31,905 bases of DNA from a virus: positions 1 to 31,905 of IMG/VR virus record IMGVR_UViG_3300031951_000776; one strand, 5' to 3'. Under the pieces are notes generated by a model. That model saw only the letters and a list, made by a program, of their open reading frames with translations, was not told the origin of the DNA and did no database searches. The first letter of the stretch is position 1. Every line of letters starts with the position of its first letter. The position numbers and the translations under genes are program-made. Below, one piece after another: positions 2 through 31,347 of this stretch.

Positions 2-1072
2 AACTACGCTGATTACCTATCATCTAAACTGAACGAATCTATTAAATATACTGAGCATGTTGCTGAGACTACTAACAACGGTATCGAGTATGCTAGCTAT
101 ATTGGTGAGAAACTAAACGAGTCAGTAAACTATCAAGATTACTTGGCTGAGAAGTTAAACGAGAACATCAACTACTCTGAGTACTTGAAAGAGAACTTAA
201 ACTCTTCTATCAAGACTCTTAACAATTCTGTAAAATACCAAAACTATCTAGCAGAAGAGTTAGACAGAGGGTTACAGTACACTGAATACGTTGCTGAAGG
301 TGCAAACAGAGGAATTGAATTTGCAGAATACCTTGCAGAAAACGTAAACGCTAACCGTGACTACGCTCAATACATCGCTGAAAAACTAGATCAAAACATT
401 GGTTACTCTGAATACATCGCTGAATCTCTTAACGGAGGAACAGTAGTAGGAGGAAGAAACGTTCTTGGTGGAGTTGCTGGATTAAACGAGTCTACTTCAA
501 TCGACAACTTAATCTCTAAAGTAGATGCAGTTATCACAGAAGTTAACAGTTCTTCAGCTAAAGCAGTTCTTGAAAGCAAATATCCTTTCTTAAAGGTTAT
601 GAGCGAAAACAACAAGAAGTCTTTCCACGGTCTAGATACAGACAGCAAACAAGCAATCGTAGAAGCTCTTAACGGATCTCTTTGGTTCAACGAGAACGAC
701 GTATTAGGAATTATGGAAGCAGTTCTTAACCACAAGAACGAAAACGTTCCTAGCTACGTTAGATTCATGCCAGTAGAGTACAAGACTCTTTGGACTGAAA
801 TGAACGAAAGCGAGAAGAATAGAATTCACGCTAAAGCTCAACTTTACACAGTAAACACTCCTTACCAAGCCAAAGCGTTTTGGGACGAAATGGACATGAG
901 AGGAGTACAATACAGAATCGAAGAAAGCAAACAACAAAATAAATTGCAACAACTCAACGAAAGCCAAAGTACAGAAGGCCTAATACCTGTAAATCAGGTT
1001 GTTGAGATGCAGAGAGGTTACTCTCAAGGTTACCTACAAGGTCTACAGAGATCTGCAGATCTTAGAAAGTAA
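2..1072 (+). CDS. Scaffold-like prohead core protein with 14-residue repeats (5' end outside window)
   Basis: The reading frame is open from the left edge, so the true start lies upstream; the TTG at 143 is not a convincing start. The visible N-terminal half is about ten copies of a 14-residue unit of the form YxxYLAEKLNExIx, with one 7-residue half unit (TLNNSVK) in the array. A 14-residue, two-heptad period suggests a long helical or coiled-coil rod. The C-terminal part is non-repetitive, helical and Glu/Lys-rich (around SKYPFLKVMSENNKKSF and VRFMPVEYKTLW). It sits 27 bp upstream of the gp23 homologue, where T4 has the core scaffold gene 22, so a prohead core role is inferred from position and architecture rather than recognised sequence identity. 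Two matches to the T4 prohead protease consensus (I/L)xE|(A/G), IVE|A and IME|A, occur in the C-terminal part. A long tail fibre or other structural rod is a less likely alternative. Confidence 0.6.
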   Translation, partial: NYADYLSSKLNESIKYTEHVAETTNNGIEYASYIGEKLNESVNYQDYLAEKLNENINYSEYLKENLNSSIKTLNNSVKYQNYLAEELDRGLQYTEYVAEGANRGIEFAEYLAENVNANRDYAQYIAEKLDQNIGYSEYIAESLNGGTVVGGRNVLGGVAGLNESTSIDNLISKVDAVITEVNSSSAKAVLESKYPFLKVMSENNKKSFHGLDTDSKQAIVEALNGSLWFNENDVLGIMEAVLNHKNENVPSYVRFMPVEYKTLWTEMNESEKNRIHAKAQLYTVNTPYQAKAFWDEMDMRGVQYRIEESKQQNKLQQLNESQSTEGLIPVNQVVEMQRGYSQGYLQGLQRSADLRK

Positions 1073-1099: not shown

Positions 1100-2770
1100 A
1101 TGGCACGTACAAAAATTTTCAGACGTTCAAGCGATAATCGCTTGGCAACTACCTGGAACCCAATCTTAGAAGGATATGGTGCAGACGTTGCAAAGACTCC
1201 ATGGTTAGCTGAGTATGCTCACAACCACGCGATCTTTGATAACGCTACTCCATTGTTCGAACAGACTGCTCCTGGTGTATTCTTACAAACTCCTGGATCT
1301 CTTGGTGGATTCATGGGTAACCCACAAGCTCCAACACCTTCTCAAACTCCATTCACAGGCGGTGTTAAAAATGCTTACTCTGACTCAGGTTCAGGTGACA
1401 AGTTTCCATCTTTGTTACCAGTAGCGATTCAGGTTGCTGCTAAGACTATCGGTTTCGATCTAGTTCCTGTAATCCCTATGGATTCTCCAGTTGGATTCCT
1501 TCCTTACTTGGATTATCTATATGCAGGTGGTCGTACAACTGGTTCTGACTTTGATCCTTATTTAGTAAAACTAGAAGGAATTAAAGCAGACGTTCTTACT
1601 GCTACTCCTGAAGCTGGTGATGCTGTTAGAACTGCAGGTGGTGGTGGTGACATTACTGCTGAATTCGTTGGATTCTCTCGCGTAGACGGTACAATGATCA
1701 TCAAGATCCTTGCTGACGCTTCAACTGGAGGTACTACTACAATCGACGGTGAATTTTCAGGAAACGATATCGACATCAATTTTGGTGCTGGTTTCATTAA
1801 CCAAGTAGGAACAAACGTTGATGCTGTTTCTTTAGTATCTGCGTTAGAAAACCACATTTCTGGTTTCACTTCAGTATCTGATGCTGAGTATGATCAACCT
1901 CAAGGTAGATTCTACGGTAACTACTTACCTACAACTGGAAACACTCCTAACGGAATGTCTCGTGAGGCTGGTGAGAACTCTAAGTTCCGTCAAATGGGTC
2001 TAAGAATGTTCACTAAGTTTGTTGAGGCTAAGACTGACCAGGTTTCTATCTCAGCAACAGTTGAGCAAATCCAAGACTTGAACAGAGTATGGAACTACGA
2101 CGTTATCTCTATGTTAGAGAACGTTGCAGTAAACGACCTTGCTCAATCTATCAACAAGCAACTTGTTGACCGAGTATTCCAAATGGCTGATGTTCACAAC
2201 GGTGAGATCGACCTAGTTGAAGGTACTGGAATCACAACTCTTGACCTTTCTACAGGTACAGGAGGTTTCGAAAACGTTTCTACATTGCAACGTAGATTAG
2301 TTACTAAAGTTCTTGAACTTGCTAACTTGATCTACCATAGAGGACGTTTCGGAGCTGGTACATTCATGGTAACTAACGGACGCCTTGCTTCTGCATTGGC
2401 AGACGTTGCTGGTTACTCAATTGCACAAGTTCCAACTGATATGACTGGTGTTGCTGGAAACCTTTACCCTGCTGGTAAAGTTTACGGTGTACAGGTTTAT
2501 GTTGACCCTAACTTATCTTGGGGAGATACAAGACTTGCAATCGGTCGTAAAGGTGCTGACGAAGAGCCTGGAGTTAAATTCATGCCGTACATCATGGCTG
2601 AATCTCTTCAGACTATCGCAGAGGGTACATTCTCTCCAAAAATCGGTATGAAATCTCGTTACGCGATTACTGAAGCTGGATGGCACCCTGAAACACAGTA
2701 TGTTAACATGGATATCCAAGGTGATATCGCAGTTCTTACTGGTGGTGTTGCACCTGCAAACTTTAGCTAG
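1100..2770 (+). CDS. 23: Major capsid protein, T4 gp23-like
   Basis: This 556-aa protein (T4 gp23 is 521 aa) builds the hexameric capsid lattice with an HK97-type fold. Recognisable gp23 blocks are the PMDSPVGFLPYLDYLYAGG stretch near residues 126-144, the QMGLRMFTKFVEAKTDQVS segment near 298-316, the RRGAG-like HRGRFGAGTFMVTNGRLAS segment, and the C-terminal VYVDPNLSW ... GMKSRYAI region. Residues about 150-285 are a Gly/Thr/Asp-rich stretch that looks like an inserted surface domain. The N-terminus contains NPILEGYG; I22-L23-E24|G25 fits the T4 gp21 protease consensus, which would remove 24 residues (T4 removes 65). It follows the scaffold-like gene by 27 bp with no promoter box between, so the two are probably co-transcribed, and it is followed by a strong terminator. 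The leader is A-rich without an SD. Confidence 0.95.
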   Translation: MARTKIFRRSSDNRLATTWNPILEGYGADVAKTPWLAEYAHNHAIFDNATPLFEQTAPGVFLQTPGSLGGFMGNPQAPTPSQTPFTGGVKNAYSDSGSGDKFPSLLPVAIQVAAKTIGFDLVPVIPMDSPVGFLPYLDYLYAGGRTTGSDFDPYLVKLEGIKADVLTATPEAGDAVRTAGGGGDITAEFVGFSRVDGTMIIKILADASTGGTTTIDGEFSGNDIDINFGAGFINQVGTNVDAVSLVSALENHISGFTSVSDAEYDQPQGRFYGNYLPTTGNTPNGMSREAGENSKFRQMGLRMFTKFVEAKTDQVSISATVEQIQDLNRVWNYDVISMLENVAVNDLAQSINKQLVDRVFQMADVHNGEIDLVEGTGITTLDLSTGTGGFENVSTLQRRLVTKVLELANLIYHRGRFGAGTFMVTNGRLASALADVAGYSIAQVPTDMTGVAGNLYPAGKVYGVQVYVDPNLSWGDTRLAIGRKGADEEPGVKFMPYIMAESLQTIAEGTFSPKIGMKSRYAITEAGWHPETQYVNMDIQGDIAVLTGGVAPANFS

Positions 2771-11351: not shown

Positions 11352-11615
11352 ATGAAAAGAGCAATCGAAAGATTTGAACAATACGCTCTATTTGAAAAGA
11401 AGGGCGATCTCAAAAAGCTAGTCGGAAAAGACGAAGACGAAGAGTTGACGGTGAACGACGCCAAGCGATTGGGTGTTAAGATTGCTAACATGGATGGTGA
11501 AGACAAGAAAAAATACGTCGGAATCATTAACTTCTTAGGAGCTTCGTGTAACATCTATAACGAGATCTGGAAGAATTATAGAAGAACCCGAGACAGAAAA
11601 GAACGAAATGCATAA
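11352..11615 (+). CDS. Small charged protein of unknown function (87 aa)
   Basis: The protein is highly charged. It starts MKRAIERFEQYALFEKKGDL, continues with the acidic GKDEDEELTVNDAKRLG, and ends in a basic helix (NYRRTRDRKERNA). The N-terminal RFEQYALFE has the same look as LFEDFSRIYE at 29464, a pattern seen in T4-type head-targeting peptides, though LFE|K does not fit the cleavage rule well. It follows the 75-aa gene by 11 bp, and its last 8 bp overlap the next gene, so all three are one late operon. Structural or assembly function is inferred from operon context only. Confidence 0.7.
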   Translation: MKRAIERFEQYALFEKKGDLKKLVGKDEDEELTVNDAKRLGVKIANMDGEDKKKYVGIINFLGASCNIYNEIWKNYRRTRDRKERNA

Positions 11616-13509: not shown

Positions 13510-14154
13510 ATGGAAATGTTCAACACACACAGAAGAGACTTATTGGGATTTGAAGATTACATGGACCTTAAGAAGCCTGGCTTCGGAGGACCTAAATCAG
13601 CTATTCCTTCAAGAGATGCTAAGGGTAAGTCAATAGATAAGAGCCCTAAGCTTGCTCAATATCGCAGAACTGTTGAACGCGATCCTGCATTCTCACATAA
13701 AGTATGGGACTCTACATATAAGGCAATGACTCATGACTTGGTGTACAAACAAGAAGGTAAAAAACCTTTTACTTATCCTGATCCATACTTGACTGCATAT
13801 CCAACGGTTGAGGTTGGAGAAATAGACGAAAACACGAACGTTGTTTCTTTTAGTCGTTTTGTAAACGAAAACGATGAACCAGAAGAAGGATTCATGCCTG
13901 AAGACTATCCAGAAGACACTTATCCGGAAGGAACGGATGAAACTGATTATCCTACCCCATACGATGATAAAGGATTACCTTTAGCTACATCTGATATTAA
14001 GGAAATTGAAGCTAGATTAAGAGGATATGAAGGTTCTGGTAGAACAGGATCTGAAGAGTCTGATGAGTATGGCCTAAATCCAACTGATGCTGAAAATCCA
14101 CTAGGATTAACTAAAGAAGAAATGGATAAGTTTTTAGCTGAACTGAATCGCTAA
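13510..14154 (+). CDS. Acidic late protein of unknown function (214 aa)
   Basis: The protein lies 4 bp after the tail tube gene in the same orientation. Its N-terminal half is basic (FGGPKSAIPSRDAKGKSIDK) and the middle has KKPFTYPDPYLTAYPTVEVG and VVSFSRFVNENDE. The C-terminal half is very acidic and Pro/Tyr-rich, with repeats of the type EDYPEDTYPEGTDETDYP. It ends with a helix, KEEMDKFLAELNR. No known domain is recognised. Tail or neck association is suggested only by its position after gp19. ATG codons at 13510 and 13516 are both possible starts. Its stop overlaps the stop of the convergent gene at 14151 by 3 bp. Confidence 0.75.
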   Translation: MEMFNTHRRDLLGFEDYMDLKKPGFGGPKSAIPSRDAKGKSIDKSPKLAQYRRTVERDPAFSHKVWDSTYKAMTHDLVYKQEGKKPFTYPDPYLTAYPTVEVGEIDENTNVVSFSRFVNENDEPEEGFMPEDYPEDTYPEGTDETDYPTPYDDKGLPLATSDIKEIEARLRGYEGSGRTGSEESDEYGLNPTDAENPLGLTKEEMDKFLAELNR

Positions 14155-26439: not shown

Positions 26440-29439
26440 ATGGCAGAACCAAGAGTAAACTTAAATAACTTCAAGTCTAGTGGTGTCTATACCATTGAAA
26501 TAGACGCTAGCGAGAACGTAGTTTTACCTCTTACCACAGGAAGACTTGTGGTTGGATCGAGTAAGGTAGGGCCTTTCAACACAGTTGTGTTAATCAATGA
26601 CGTTAGAACTCTTAGAGCAGTATTCGGTGAAATTGACCCTAAACTAGAAAAAGCAGGAAGCTACTTCCACAGAACAATCGAGGTTGCTTTGAGAGAAGGT
26701 CCTGTTTTTGCATTAAACGTTATGCCGTTAGACACGGAAGACGATCCTGCTCTTAACTTAGATCAGGCATACTTCACTACATTCAATACTGAATCAACTT
26801 CAAACAATAATCAATCTTTACCTGACCAATGGCCAGCAGTAGAGTTCTTCAACAGAAGAAGACTTTGGTTTGCTAGCGACGATGAGTTGAACAAGTCAAA
26901 AAACCTTGCACTTGGTGACGATTATATTAACAACCCTGGAGGATTTGGAAACACTACTTCAACTTCAAATAAAGTATTATCATTTGTTAACTTAGGAAAT
27001 TCTAACTTGACGATTTGGGTAAGAAGAGCAAGCATCACAGGATACGACGTTACTGCTAAGGAATGGTATTCAACGATCGGTGGAGGAAATGCTATTGAAT
27101 TCCCTTCATTCGTTCACCCAGACGATTTCATCTCTGATTATTTCGTTGAAGTTATCGTTATTAATGGTGACTGGTCTAACTACTTAAAATTAGCAAAAGA
27201 CCCTGTTTACAGTCAGTTCTTTACTCCAGCTGGATTAAGAGCAGAAAAATCTACTGATTTCTTTGCATTAAGAGAGATTAAAGTGATTAACAGAACAATC
27301 GGAAGTTTGATCCCTGGATTTAGAGATCAGTCTGGAAACACAGTATCAGTAGATGCCTTAGTAAATAGAGTTTTTGCTAGCACTGGAGTTCTTTGTGCGA
27401 TCGATGCTGAAAAACTTGACTTAGTTAACTTAGATACTACCGGATTCGTAGATAACGACATGGAGACTCACCGAATTGACTTGATTGGTCATGGTTTTGA
27501 CGAACTTGATTCTCAAGACACATACACTGCAGATGACGGTGGATACGATGTTACAGGTTCTCCTTTAGATACAGCTGACGCAACTCCATTGATTGACTTA
27601 TTGAGCTACACTAGACCGGCAGACTCTAACTTGATCTTCTTAATCAGCAATAACCCTAGCGTAAACACGTTAGATGAAGTTGATTTCTTAGCTGGATACA
27701 ATGATACTCCAGGAGCAACACCAGTTGCTTTAGGAGACACATACTTAGTAGTTCCTGCATCAGGAGATGAGTATCTTGCAGCAATGGAAGGTAGTAAACT
27801 TTATCAAGCATACGCTAAAGGTTTCTTGAGAAACGGAGACACTATGATTGATGGCACAAACACATACTACATTAAGACTACTGACAACTTGATTAGCGGT
27901 GGATTTAACTATGTTAAGATTGCTACATACCAAGACATAACGTTATTAAACCAAGTAAACACTAACTATTACACTGGACCAGATTCAGAAGACTATATCA
28001 AAGTAGTATTAGATAATGGTGCTGAGTTTAAACATACGTTTGACTTGACTGATACTACATTCTTTACAAGTTACGATGCTCAACAACCTAACAAGATCGT
28101 ATTAGGAATCAATACTACTAACACTGCAAACAAAGCTAAGATCGACGAGTTTATTAAAGTAAACAACTTCATTAAAGCTAAGGTTGCTGGATCAGTTAGA
28201 CCTAGATTATTAAAGATAATTTCAGTATCTTCTGCTGAAGAGCTTAGTCCATATGCTTTGACTTACACAGTTACGACTATGGCTCCTAGTGTTGACGATA
28301 TCATTGGACTTGATGTAGACGGTAGCGAATTGAAAGTTTACAAAGGAATCTATAACTTCGTGACTGAATTAAAAGGTCAAAACTTAGGTTCTTTCAGACT
28401 AAGAGATGCTTCTCTTCCTAACGGAACTGCAGATCGTCAAGCCAACATCTTAAGCTACTTATTTAATTACACTTCAATACCAGAAGCGTTAGCTAATGGT
28501 GAATTGGTTGACTTTAGATATGTAGTTGACTCTTATGAAGGTGAGATCTCAAGCAACTCTAAATATTACTTGGCGAAGATTGCAGCAATGCACGGACAAG
28601 CTATGGCTTTACTTAATGCTCCGTCAATAAGACAGTTTGAGAAATCAGTTACACCAAGCTTTATCAACCCAGTTAGCAAATTAGTTTCTTCTGAGTATAT
28701 TTCAACTGGTGGTAACTTGTCTCTTAACCCAGAGTTCACGTTTAAGTTTGCTGAAGAAGACGTTAATGGAGTTCCATTGTCTTCTTATGCCAACTACACT
28801 TTCCCTAACGTTATCGTTAGAAGCGGATCTAGAAACATCTCAGTTCCGCCTGCAGCATACATCTCTAACTTATACGTTAGAAAATTCAAGAACGGAACAC
28901 CATTCTTGATCGTAGCTGGTGGAAAACGTGGAGCAATCACAGATCCTGAATTAGTAGGATTAGAATACGACTTAACGGATGCAGATAGAGATTTCTTAGA
29001 GCCTGCAGGATTCAACCTTATCGTTAGAAGAAGAGGATTTGGAACTATCTTGTTCTCAAACAATACTGCATACCAAAGAATCAATTCAGCTCTTAACAAT
29101 GCTCATGTTAGAGATAACTTATCTACTATCGAAAGAGATATCGAACGAATCTTATTCAACTTCTTGTTTGATTTCAATGATGAGATCACAAGACTTAGAG
29201 TTAGAACAATCGTTGAAAATTACTTAGATGCAGTAGTTAATGCTAGAGGTATTAGTTCTTATGAAGTTATCTTTGATACTTCAAACAACACTGGCGAAGT
29301 GATATCAGCTAATGCTGCGGTATTGGACATTAGAGTAGATTTCCCAAGAGGAATTCAAAAGTTCATCAACCGAATCACTATCACTAGAGTAGGAGGAACT
29401 TTAAGCTCAGACGCTACAGGATTTATTCCAAGCTTTTAA
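26440..29439 (+). CDS. 18: Tail sheath protein, T4 gp18-like, enlarged
   Basis: This 999-aa contractile sheath subunit is about 340 residues longer than T4 gp18 (659 aa). The N-terminus (SGVYTIEIDASENVVLPLTTG, then VGSSKVGPFNTVVLI) and the C-terminal domain (REKSVTPSF-like region, TIERDIERILFNFLFDFND, VEVIFDTSNNTGE-like strand, and FPRGIQKFINRITITR) match the conserved sheath core that packs around the tail tube. The extra length lies in the middle, roughly residues 130-700, which is Thr/Asn/Asp-rich and likely forms domains on the outer tail surface. Codon use is uniform and A/T-ending, as expected of a highly expressed gene. It has its own late box 28 nt upstream. Confidence 0.93.
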   Translation: MAEPRVNLNNFKSSGVYTIEIDASENVVLPLTTGRLVVGSSKVGPFNTVVLINDVRTLRAVFGEIDPKLEKAGSYFHRTIEVALREGPVFALNVMPLDTEDDPALNLDQAYFTTFNTESTSNNNQSLPDQWPAVEFFNRRRLWFASDDELNKSKNLALGDDYINNPGGFGNTTSTSNKVLSFVNLGNSNLTIWVRRASITGYDVTAKEWYSTIGGGNAIEFPSFVHPDDFISDYFVEVIVINGDWSNYLKLAKDPVYSQFFTPAGLRAEKSTDFFALREIKVINRTIGSLIPGFRDQSGNTVSVDALVNRVFASTGVLCAIDAEKLDLVNLDTTGFVDNDMETHRIDLIGHGFDELDSQDTYTADDGGYDVTGSPLDTADATPLIDLLSYTRPADSNLIFLISNNPSVNTLDEVDFLAGYNDTPGATPVALGDTYLVVPASGDEYLAAMEGSKLYQAYAKGFLRNGDTMIDGTNTYYIKTTDNLISGGFNYVKIATYQDITLLNQVNTNYYTGPDSEDYIKVVLDNGAEFKHTFDLTDTTFFTSYDAQQPNKIVLGINTTNTANKAKIDEFIKVNNFIKAKVAGSVRPRLLKIISVSSAEELSPYALTYTVTTMAPSVDDIIGLDVDGSELKVYKGIYNFVTELKGQNLGSFRLRDASLPNGTADRQANILSYLFNYTSIPEALANGELVDFRYVVDSYEGEISSNSKYYLAKIAAMHGQAMALLNAPSIRQFEKSVTPSFINPVSKLVSSEYISTGGNLSLNPEFTFKFAEEDVNGVPLSSYANYTFPNVIVRSGSRNISVPPAAYISNLYVRKFKNGTPFLIVAGGKRGAITDPELVGLEYDLTDADRDFLEPAGFNLIVRRRGFGTILFSNNTAYQRINSALNNAHVRDNLSTIERDIERILFNFLFDFNDEITRLRVRTIVENYLDAVVNARGISSYEVIFDTSNNTGEVISANAAVLDIRVDFPRGIQKFINRITITRVGGTLSSDATGFIPSF

Positions 29440-29463: not shown

Positions 29464-29922
29464 ATGCATAAATATATTAAATTGTTTGAAGATTTTTCTA
29501 GAATTTACGAAGCTGATACTTTAGAGATGTCAGGTCTAGCTAAACGTATTTACAATGACTTGAAAAGAGAAGGCATGGACGTTAGTTTAAGTTATCAAAA
29601 TGAAACGATGGCTAAACGCAGTAAGACTAAAGAATTGGGCGATTCTGGCGGAATGGATAAAATCACAGTAGCATATGCGACTGATCCTCTAGGAAAAGAG
29701 GATTATATTCACGTTTTAGGATTACCTGATGAAAATTATGCTAGAGACTTAGCAAATCGATATGAATCAGAGAACGTTTCTGGAGAAGTATCATATTCTT
29801 ATGAAAGTTGGAAAATTACTTTTAAGCTCAAGCAAGAAGATCAGAGAATGAAATATGAGTTAGGAAGAGGATATGAGACTCGTAAAAACAAAAACGATCG
29901 TAAAAGGAGAAGAAGAGATTAG
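29464..29922 (+). CDS. Probable internal head protein with capsid-targeting peptide
   Basis: The 152-aa product begins MHKYIKLFEDFSRIYEADTL. Residues I14-Y15-E16|A17 fit the T4 prohead protease rule (I/L)xE|(A/G), and the whole segment resembles the IPIII targeting peptide MKTYQEFIAEA, which is cut after its Glu during head maturation. Removal would leave a mature basic protein ending in KNKNDRKRRRRD, suited to binding DNA inside the capsid. The rest is a mixed fold with VSLSYQNETMAKRSKT and YARDLANRYESENVSGEVS. No family is recognised. It lies 24 bp after the sheath gene. Packaging and injection into the host are inferred, not shown. Confidence 0.75.
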   Translation: MHKYIKLFEDFSRIYEADTLEMSGLAKRIYNDLKREGMDVSLSYQNETMAKRSKTKELGDSGGMDKITVAYATDPLGKEDYIHVLGLPDENYARDLANRYESENVSGEVSYSYESWKITFKLKQEDQRMKYELGRGYETRKNKNDRKRRRRD

Positions 29923-29961
29923 GAAATTATCCCTAGCTTCTAATAAAAAAATAAATTGAAG

Positions 29962-30810: not shown

Positions 30811-31347
30811 ATGAAAAATTACAAAATTGATCCATTGCATTCGGATGTATCATTTAGAATTAAACATCTAATGATATCTAATGTTAACGGATTTTTCGGA
30901 GAATTTGATGCAACTATGGAATCTAATACTGAAGATTTTTCCGATGCTAAAATTTGGTTTCAGGCAAAAGTTAACACGATATCAACTAACATCACTGATC
31001 GTGATAATCATTTAAAAGGACCTGACTTTTTTGATGTTGATAATTTCCCTCATTTAACTTTCGAATCCTCTAAAGTAGAAAAGAAAGACGATGAATACGT
31101 AATCGTAGGAAATTTAACAATCAAAGGAGTTTCTAGAGAAGTAACCCTATCTGGAAATTATAACGGAAATGATGTAGATGCGTACGGGCAAACCAAATAT
31201 GGATTCGAACTTAATGGATCTATAAACCGAAAAGACTGGGGTTTAACATTCAACCTAGAAGGTGGTAAAGGTTCACTTTTGATTGGTGATGAAGTTAAGC
31301 TTATGGTTAATATACAAATGATGGAATCATGTGATAATATCAACTAG
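30811..31347 (+). CDS. YceI-family protein (lipid/isoprenoid-binding lipocalin-like)
   Basis: This 178-aa protein is all beta, with the YceI opening KIDPLHSDVSFRIKHLMISNVNGFF, the KIWFQAKVNTISTNI strand, RDNHLKGPDFFDVDNFPHLTFES and NRKDWGLTFNLEGGKGSLLIGDEVKLMV. The family binds polyisoprenoids or other amphiphiles in an 8-stranded barrel. Bacterial versions usually have a signal peptide; this one has none and would stay cytoplasmic, like many Bacteroidota members. It lies between the endolysin and a sensor-kinase-like gene, so it may be an accessory (host-derived) gene. The phage role is unknown. Confidence 0.92.
   Translation: MKNYKIDPLHSDVSFRIKHLMISNVNGFFGEFDATMESNTEDFSDAKIWFQAKVNTISTNITDRDNHLKGPDFFDVDNFPHLTFESSKVEKKDDEYVIVGNLTIKGVSREVTLSGNYNGNDVDAYGQTKYGFELNGSINRKDWGLTFNLEGGKGSLLIGDEVKLMVNIQMMESCDNIN

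What the first reader, a model, noticed from the sequence alone, without database searches (positions are those of the whole stretch)
29464..29922. Candidate packaged head protein with a T4-like capsid-targeting sequence
MHKYIKLFEDFSRIYE|A resembles the T4 IPIII/IPI targeting peptide MKTYQEFIAE|A and obeys the gp21 cleavage rule (I-Y-E|A). The mature product is basic with an RRRR tail. T4 internal proteins are injected with DNA and counter host defences, so this unknown protein could be an injected effector.
Basis: partly seen in the sequence, partly recalled or inferred. Interest (0 to 1): 0.65.

Follow-up and report, generated by a model that had tools for sequence, protein, structure and literature searches.

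The report
Head-targeted phage cargo gene, recently inserted
A small gene freshly inserted behind the tail-sheath gene of an uncultured T4-related phage starts with an address label found on dozens of unrelated proteins in its relatives; the label looks like one repeat unit of the phage's own head scaffold, so the protein is probably packed into the head and injected into the host.

Summary
The ORF is real (29464-29922, 152 aa). Across 2,017 proteins (460 families) from relatives, an N-terminal tag [FY]xx[FYW](x0-2)[LIVM]xE is strongly enriched. Families at spacings 0, 1 and 2 number 34, 10 and 16, against 1.6, 1.3 and 1.4 in shuffles; spacings 3 and 4 show little or no excess. The ORF carries the spacing-2 form (F8-ED-F11-SR-I14-Y-E16|A17). 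T4 is a positive control: the spacing-0 pattern finds IPII, IPIII and the gp23 cleavage site. Scanned over all proteins, the tag profile recurs repeatedly inside one family above all: the protease-scaffold fusion, whose scaffold is built of 14-residue repeats (YxxYLAE). This suggests the tag mimics a scaffold repeat, i.e. is a capsid-targeting sequence. A near-clonal relative lacks the gene exactly; other relatives show the insertion is derived, and it left a second copy of the sheath 3' end. The mature protein has no detectable relatives. Packaging, cleavage, injection and any anti-defence role are inferred. A tail-terminator-like fold is a weak rival. New variant of a known kind (T4 internal proteins).

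The parts
29464..29922 (+). Accessory ORF, 152 aa, predicted head cargo
   Evidence: absent from near-identical L040
29464..29511 (+). Predicted capsid-targeting propeptide, residues 1-16 (MHKYIKLFEDFSRIYE); aromatic pair F8/F11, processing pair I14/E16
   Evidence: low-confidence, mostly unstructured in the model
29512..29829 (+). Predicted mature alpha/beta domain, residues 17-122 (H16-35, E40-45, E67-73, E80-87, H90-100, E105-112, E115-122)
   Evidence: AlphaFold2 single sequence; best blocks pLDDT 84-92, loop 47-63 below 50
29830..29919 (+). Basic low-confidence tail, residues 123-152, ending RRRRD
29406..29439 (+). Recoded last codons of the sheath gene (4 synonymous differences from L040), left edge of the insertion
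29927..29943 (+). Leftover copy of the original sheath 3' end (TTATCCCTAGCTTCTAA), right edge of the insertion
26440..29439 (+). Tail sheath gene, insertion target
   Evidence: PHROG tail sheath 1.2e-91
2..1072 (+). C-terminal part of the head protease-scaffold fusion, with eight CTS-like motifs mostly 14 residues apart
1100..2770 (+). Major capsid protein, T4 gp23-like

Best explanation
The ORF encodes a T4-internal-protein-like cargo. Its first 16 residues are a capsid-targeting sequence that mimics one 14-residue repeat of the phage's own scaffold, so the protein co-assembles into the prohead core. The head-maturation protease then cleaves after E16, leaving a 136-aa protein with a basic tail among the packaged DNA. 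It is ejected into the host with the genome, most likely to counter a host defence or assist take-over. The gene was recently gained, probably by recombination at the 3' end of the sheath gene. Shown: the ORF, the tag class, the scaffold similarity, the gain. Inferred: packaging, cleavage, injection, function.
For: The tag is enriched at N-termini of unrelated families at spacings 0, 1 and 2. T4 positive control and crAss001 negative control behave as expected. The tag profile recurs internally in 16 of 17 members of the protease-scaffold family, up to five per protein, and in no other family to that extent, with motifs stepping by 14 residues or multiples. Relatives carry a head-maturation protease, PHROG E=1.2e-29. 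In T4, CTS residues 4/7 target and 8/10 process (PMC9026906), matching the aromatic pair, I/L/V and E of spacing-0 tags. Nearly the same start, MxKYIKL[FY]ED[FY], occurs on otherwise unrelated proteins, and MKYI-x-x-YE-x-F tags occur on many proteins of huge phage LR756500. A P-loop protein with a spacing-2 tag sits in the same post-sheath slot in L005. Recent clean gain.
Against: No virion proteomics were found for this lineage. The ORF's tag is not the commonest form and scores poorly ungapped. No homologue of the mature part was found. The weak fold match is to tail terminators rather than to IPI*. Some tagged families are conserved genes near head-tail genes, so not every tag need mark an injected effector.
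Confidence: 0.7

Rival explanations
1. A tail-associated protein: the mature domain has a tail-terminator (gpU-like) fold and works in the neck or tail beside the sheath.
For: VIA-align lists many phage tail terminators near the top (best Z 7.7, T1); viral Foldseek top hits include 'tail completion protein'; the gene follows the sheath gene.
Against: Z below 8 is within the range of unrelated folds (note), from a single-sequence model of mean pLDDT 67. A near-identical phage and four other relatives lack the gene at this place, so it is not an essential terminator. It does not explain the N-terminal tag.
Confidence: 0.12
2. The N-terminal tag is real but serves another step, such as anchoring to the baseplate or regulating translation, without head packaging or cleavage.
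For: No experimental localisation; some tagged families are conserved genes of unknown location.
Against: Match to T4 CTS spacing, to the gp23 cleavage site and to the scaffold repeat, and presence of the head protease.
Confidence: 0.12
3. The N-terminal resemblance of this one ORF is chance.
For: About 1.4 of 460 families would show the spacing-2 pattern by chance.
Against: 16 are observed, so roughly nine in ten such matches should be true (fewer if some listed hits are spurious); the KYIKLFED start adds further similarity.
Confidence: 0.06

Closest known systems
T4 internal proteins IPI, IPII, IPIII
   Same: Short N-terminal targeting peptide with an aromatic pair and [LI]xE|A cleavage motif; small variable accessory proteins; mature parts unrelated to each other; IPI also separates targeting and cleavage motifs
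   Different: Two-residue spacer rather than zero (IPII, IPIII) or nine (IPI); no sequence similarity found in the mature part; only mildly basic; host and target unknown
T4 Alt
   Same: Packaged, N-terminally processed enzyme; tagged enzymes (Nudix, kinase-like) occur in relatives here
   Different: Different propeptide (cleaved at ITE-6, PMC5694885) and a large ADP-ribosyltransferase
phiKZ/SPN3US ejection proteins
   Same: Propeptides removed by a gp21-related protease after Glu
   Different: Several propeptides exceed 100 residues there (PMC5694885); short here

Membership tests
T4-type CTS-bearing internal protein | N-terminal aromatic pair spaced [FY]xx[FYW] | tested here: met
   F8xxF11; class enriched 16 vs 1.4
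T4-type CTS-bearing internal protein | gp21-type cleavage motif [LI]xE followed by A/S/G | tested here: met
   I14-Y-E16|A17 in sequence; T4 sites for comparison
T4-type CTS-bearing internal protein | Fixed zero spacing of the two motifs, as in T4 IPII/IPIII (not defining: T4 IPI also departs from it) | tested here: inconclusive
   Two extra residues here; nine in T4 IPI; spacing-2 class enriched in relatives
T4-type CTS-bearing internal protein | Phage encodes head-maturation protease and scaffold core | tested here: met
   Scaffold part in window; protease-scaffold fusion in relatives; the protease half lies outside this window
T4-type CTS-bearing internal protein | Accessory, variable gene | tested here: met
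   Absent from 99.9%-identical L040 and other relatives
T4-type CTS-bearing internal protein | Basic mature protein | tested here: inconclusive
   pI 8.7 but net charge only +2
T4-type CTS-bearing internal protein | Packaged, cleaved and injected | not testable with these tools
   Needs virion proteomics
Phage tail terminator (gpU-like) | Tail-terminator fold | tested here: inconclusive
   Best Z 7.7 from a single-sequence model
Phage tail terminator (gpU-like) | Essential, conserved tail gene | tested here: not met
   Missing at this place in a near-identical phage, no match in its 64-kb record

The most novel reading that the evidence does not exclude
In this T4-related lineage the capsid address label is a single copy of the 14-residue scaffold repeat, worn with a flexible 0-2 residue spacer by about 15 to 20 largely unrelated proteins per large contig, so the head carries a broad, swappable injected proteome that can be read from sequence; this ORF is one freshly swapped-in item.
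Probability: 0.5. Interest if true: 0.78.

Novelty: new variant of a known kind. Interest (0 to 1): 0.6.

Why it matters
If true, head-packaged and injected proteins of a large uncultured phage group can be listed from sequence with one N-terminal pattern, including enzymes (Nudix, kinase-like) and many unknowns. The similarity of cargo tag and scaffold repeat suggests how capsid-targeting sequences may be recognised by the core. T4 Ip1-3 are all inhibitors of type IV restriction enzymes (PMC12373910), so such lists are candidate sources of new anti-defence proteins.

Tried and rejected
Homologue searches of the ORF: PHROGs, Pfam, NCBIfam, PADLOC, PDB sequences, INPHARED, IMG/VR, genome contigs and four relatives' records gave nothing credible. 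Weak NadE (0.011) and HGTP_anticodon (8.6e-4, below Pfam's cut-off) hits set aside: the SGGMD stretch that resembles NadE falls mostly in a low-confidence loop of the model. Homing-endonuclease cargo: no such domain found. A donor with the recoded sheath end was not found in IMG/VR. The ungapped tag profile does not recover this ORF. T4 IPI* is not among the listed fold matches, which says little. No published account of this tag in this lineage turned up in five literature searches, which does not prove absence.

Full report
Observation. The ORF is at 29464-29922 (+), 152 aa, between the tail sheath and an endolysin. The window is a 31,905-base virus record of a T4-like phage whose capsid protein is nearest, in public phage records, to the huge phage LR756500 and Prevotella Lak phages. 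The mature part (A17-D152) has pI 8.7 but a net charge of only +2.

Recent gain. L040 (IMGVR_UViG_3300033571_021637) matches the window over 11 kb upstream and 2 kb downstream. The first 10,966 bases are identical, then four synonymous differences fall in the last 34 bases of the sheath gene, then comes the inserted stretch (504 bases longer overall), then 1,979 bases with one difference. A leftover copy of the original sheath 3' end lies directly behind the ORF (29927-29943). L002, L003, L007 and L017 (roughly 75-83% identical) have the L040 arrangement, so the ORF is derived. The pattern fits recombination with a relative that carried the gene behind its sheath gene; that step is inferred and no donor was found.

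The tag. Loci around 75 related sheath genes, loci around capsid genes and five long contigs gave 2,017 proteins in 460 families, clustered on residues 29 onward so that the tag did not drive the clustering. Families with [FY]xx[FYW](x_n)[LIVM]xE in the first 26 residues number 34, 10, 16, 4 and 4 for n = 0 to 4; shuffled representatives give 1.6, 1.3, 1.4, 1.4 and 1.2. The observed counts allow any family member while the shuffles use one representative; representatives alone give 29, 6, 14, 2 and 2. Some families look related by eye (several 70-90 aa proteins) and some spacing-2 hits look spurious (for example the RecA-like protein), so the true numbers are somewhat lower. The patterns were chosen after looking at these sequences, so the T4, crAss001 and LR756500 tests below are the more independent ones. 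The ORF has the spacing-2 form, as do MSNILNFKNWLRVNED, MSHVLNFRNWYRVYES and MKYLLNYTRWVALYEA. The last is a P-loop protein in the same post-sheath slot in L005. A natural pair, MSNILNFKNWLNES and MSNILNFKNWLRVNED, shows the two-residue difference.

Controls. In T4 the spacing-0 pattern finds IPII, IPIII, one other ORF and, internally, the gp23 cleavage site FGSFLTE|A; crAss001 has none. T4 IPI separates the aromatic pair (F4, F7) from its cleavage site (ITE19|A) by nine extra residues, so spacing is not fixed even in T4. In T4, residues 4 and 7 govern targeting, and 8 and 10 processing (PMC9026906). In LR756500, 15 of 204 predicted genes in 200 kb carry the spacing-0 tag (0.9 expected from the internal rate), most with a start like MKYI-x-x-Y-x-x-F-[LI]-x-E, on mostly unrelated proteins, three of which are similar to each other; spacings 1 and 2 are absent there.

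Link to the head. A profile from 33 N-terminal tags, scanned over 546,690 residues, finds repeated internal hits mainly in one family: the protease-scaffold fusion, 16 of 17 members, up to five per protein at the threshold. Motif positions step by 14 residues or multiples. The protease half matches a PHROG head maturation protease at 1.2e-29. The window holds only the C-terminal, scaffold part. The inference is that the tag joins the scaffold as if it were one repeat and is cut by the same protease.

The mature protein. A single-sequence AlphaFold2 model has an alpha/beta core between residues 20 and 122 (best blocks pLDDT 84-92), a low-confidence tag and a low-confidence tail. Fold comparisons favour tail terminators weakly (Z up to 7.7), within the range the tool warns is uninformative. 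The protein cannot be an essential terminator, because a near-identical phage lacks it.

Verdict. The ORF is probably a head-targeted, protease-processed, injected accessory protein of the T4 internal-protein kind, with a variant tag. By analogy with T4 Ip1-3, which inhibit type IV restriction enzymes (PMC12373910), an anti-defence role is the best guess for its function (about 0.45), untested.

Noticed in passing
window 2-1072; G006:C1:55647-57485: Head protease and scaffold are one ORF in relatives; the scaffold part has 14-residue repeats (YxxYLAE) resembling T4's CTS.
   Followed up: yes
LR756500 313382-317720: Five genes in a row, one on the opposite strand, start with nearly the same tag (MKYILEYEEFLLE, MKFILEYEEFLFE or MKYIQTYDDFLNE) on largely unrelated proteins, one of them a repeat protein similar to tagged paralogues at 180972 and 198758.
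   Followed up: partly
G005:C1:170051-170542; G012:C1:29277-30209; G005:C1:133644-134609: Tagged enzymes or enzyme-like proteins: Nudix hydrolase, P-loop kinase-like protein, protein with an HELTH motif.
   Followed up: partly
window 11352-11615: 87-aa protein has a spacing-1 tag (MKRAIERFEQYALFE), possibly a core or cargo protein.
   Followed up: partly
window 13510-14154: Internal FSRFVNE motif; the tag profile hits all 6 family members internally; possible protease site in a structural protein.
   Followed up: no
slot after the sheath gene, 75 loci: Hypervariable slot: different lytic enzymes, kinase-like and tagged unknown proteins.
   Followed up: partly
window 30811-31347: YceI-like protein gene in a phage, next to the endolysin.
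   Followed up: no
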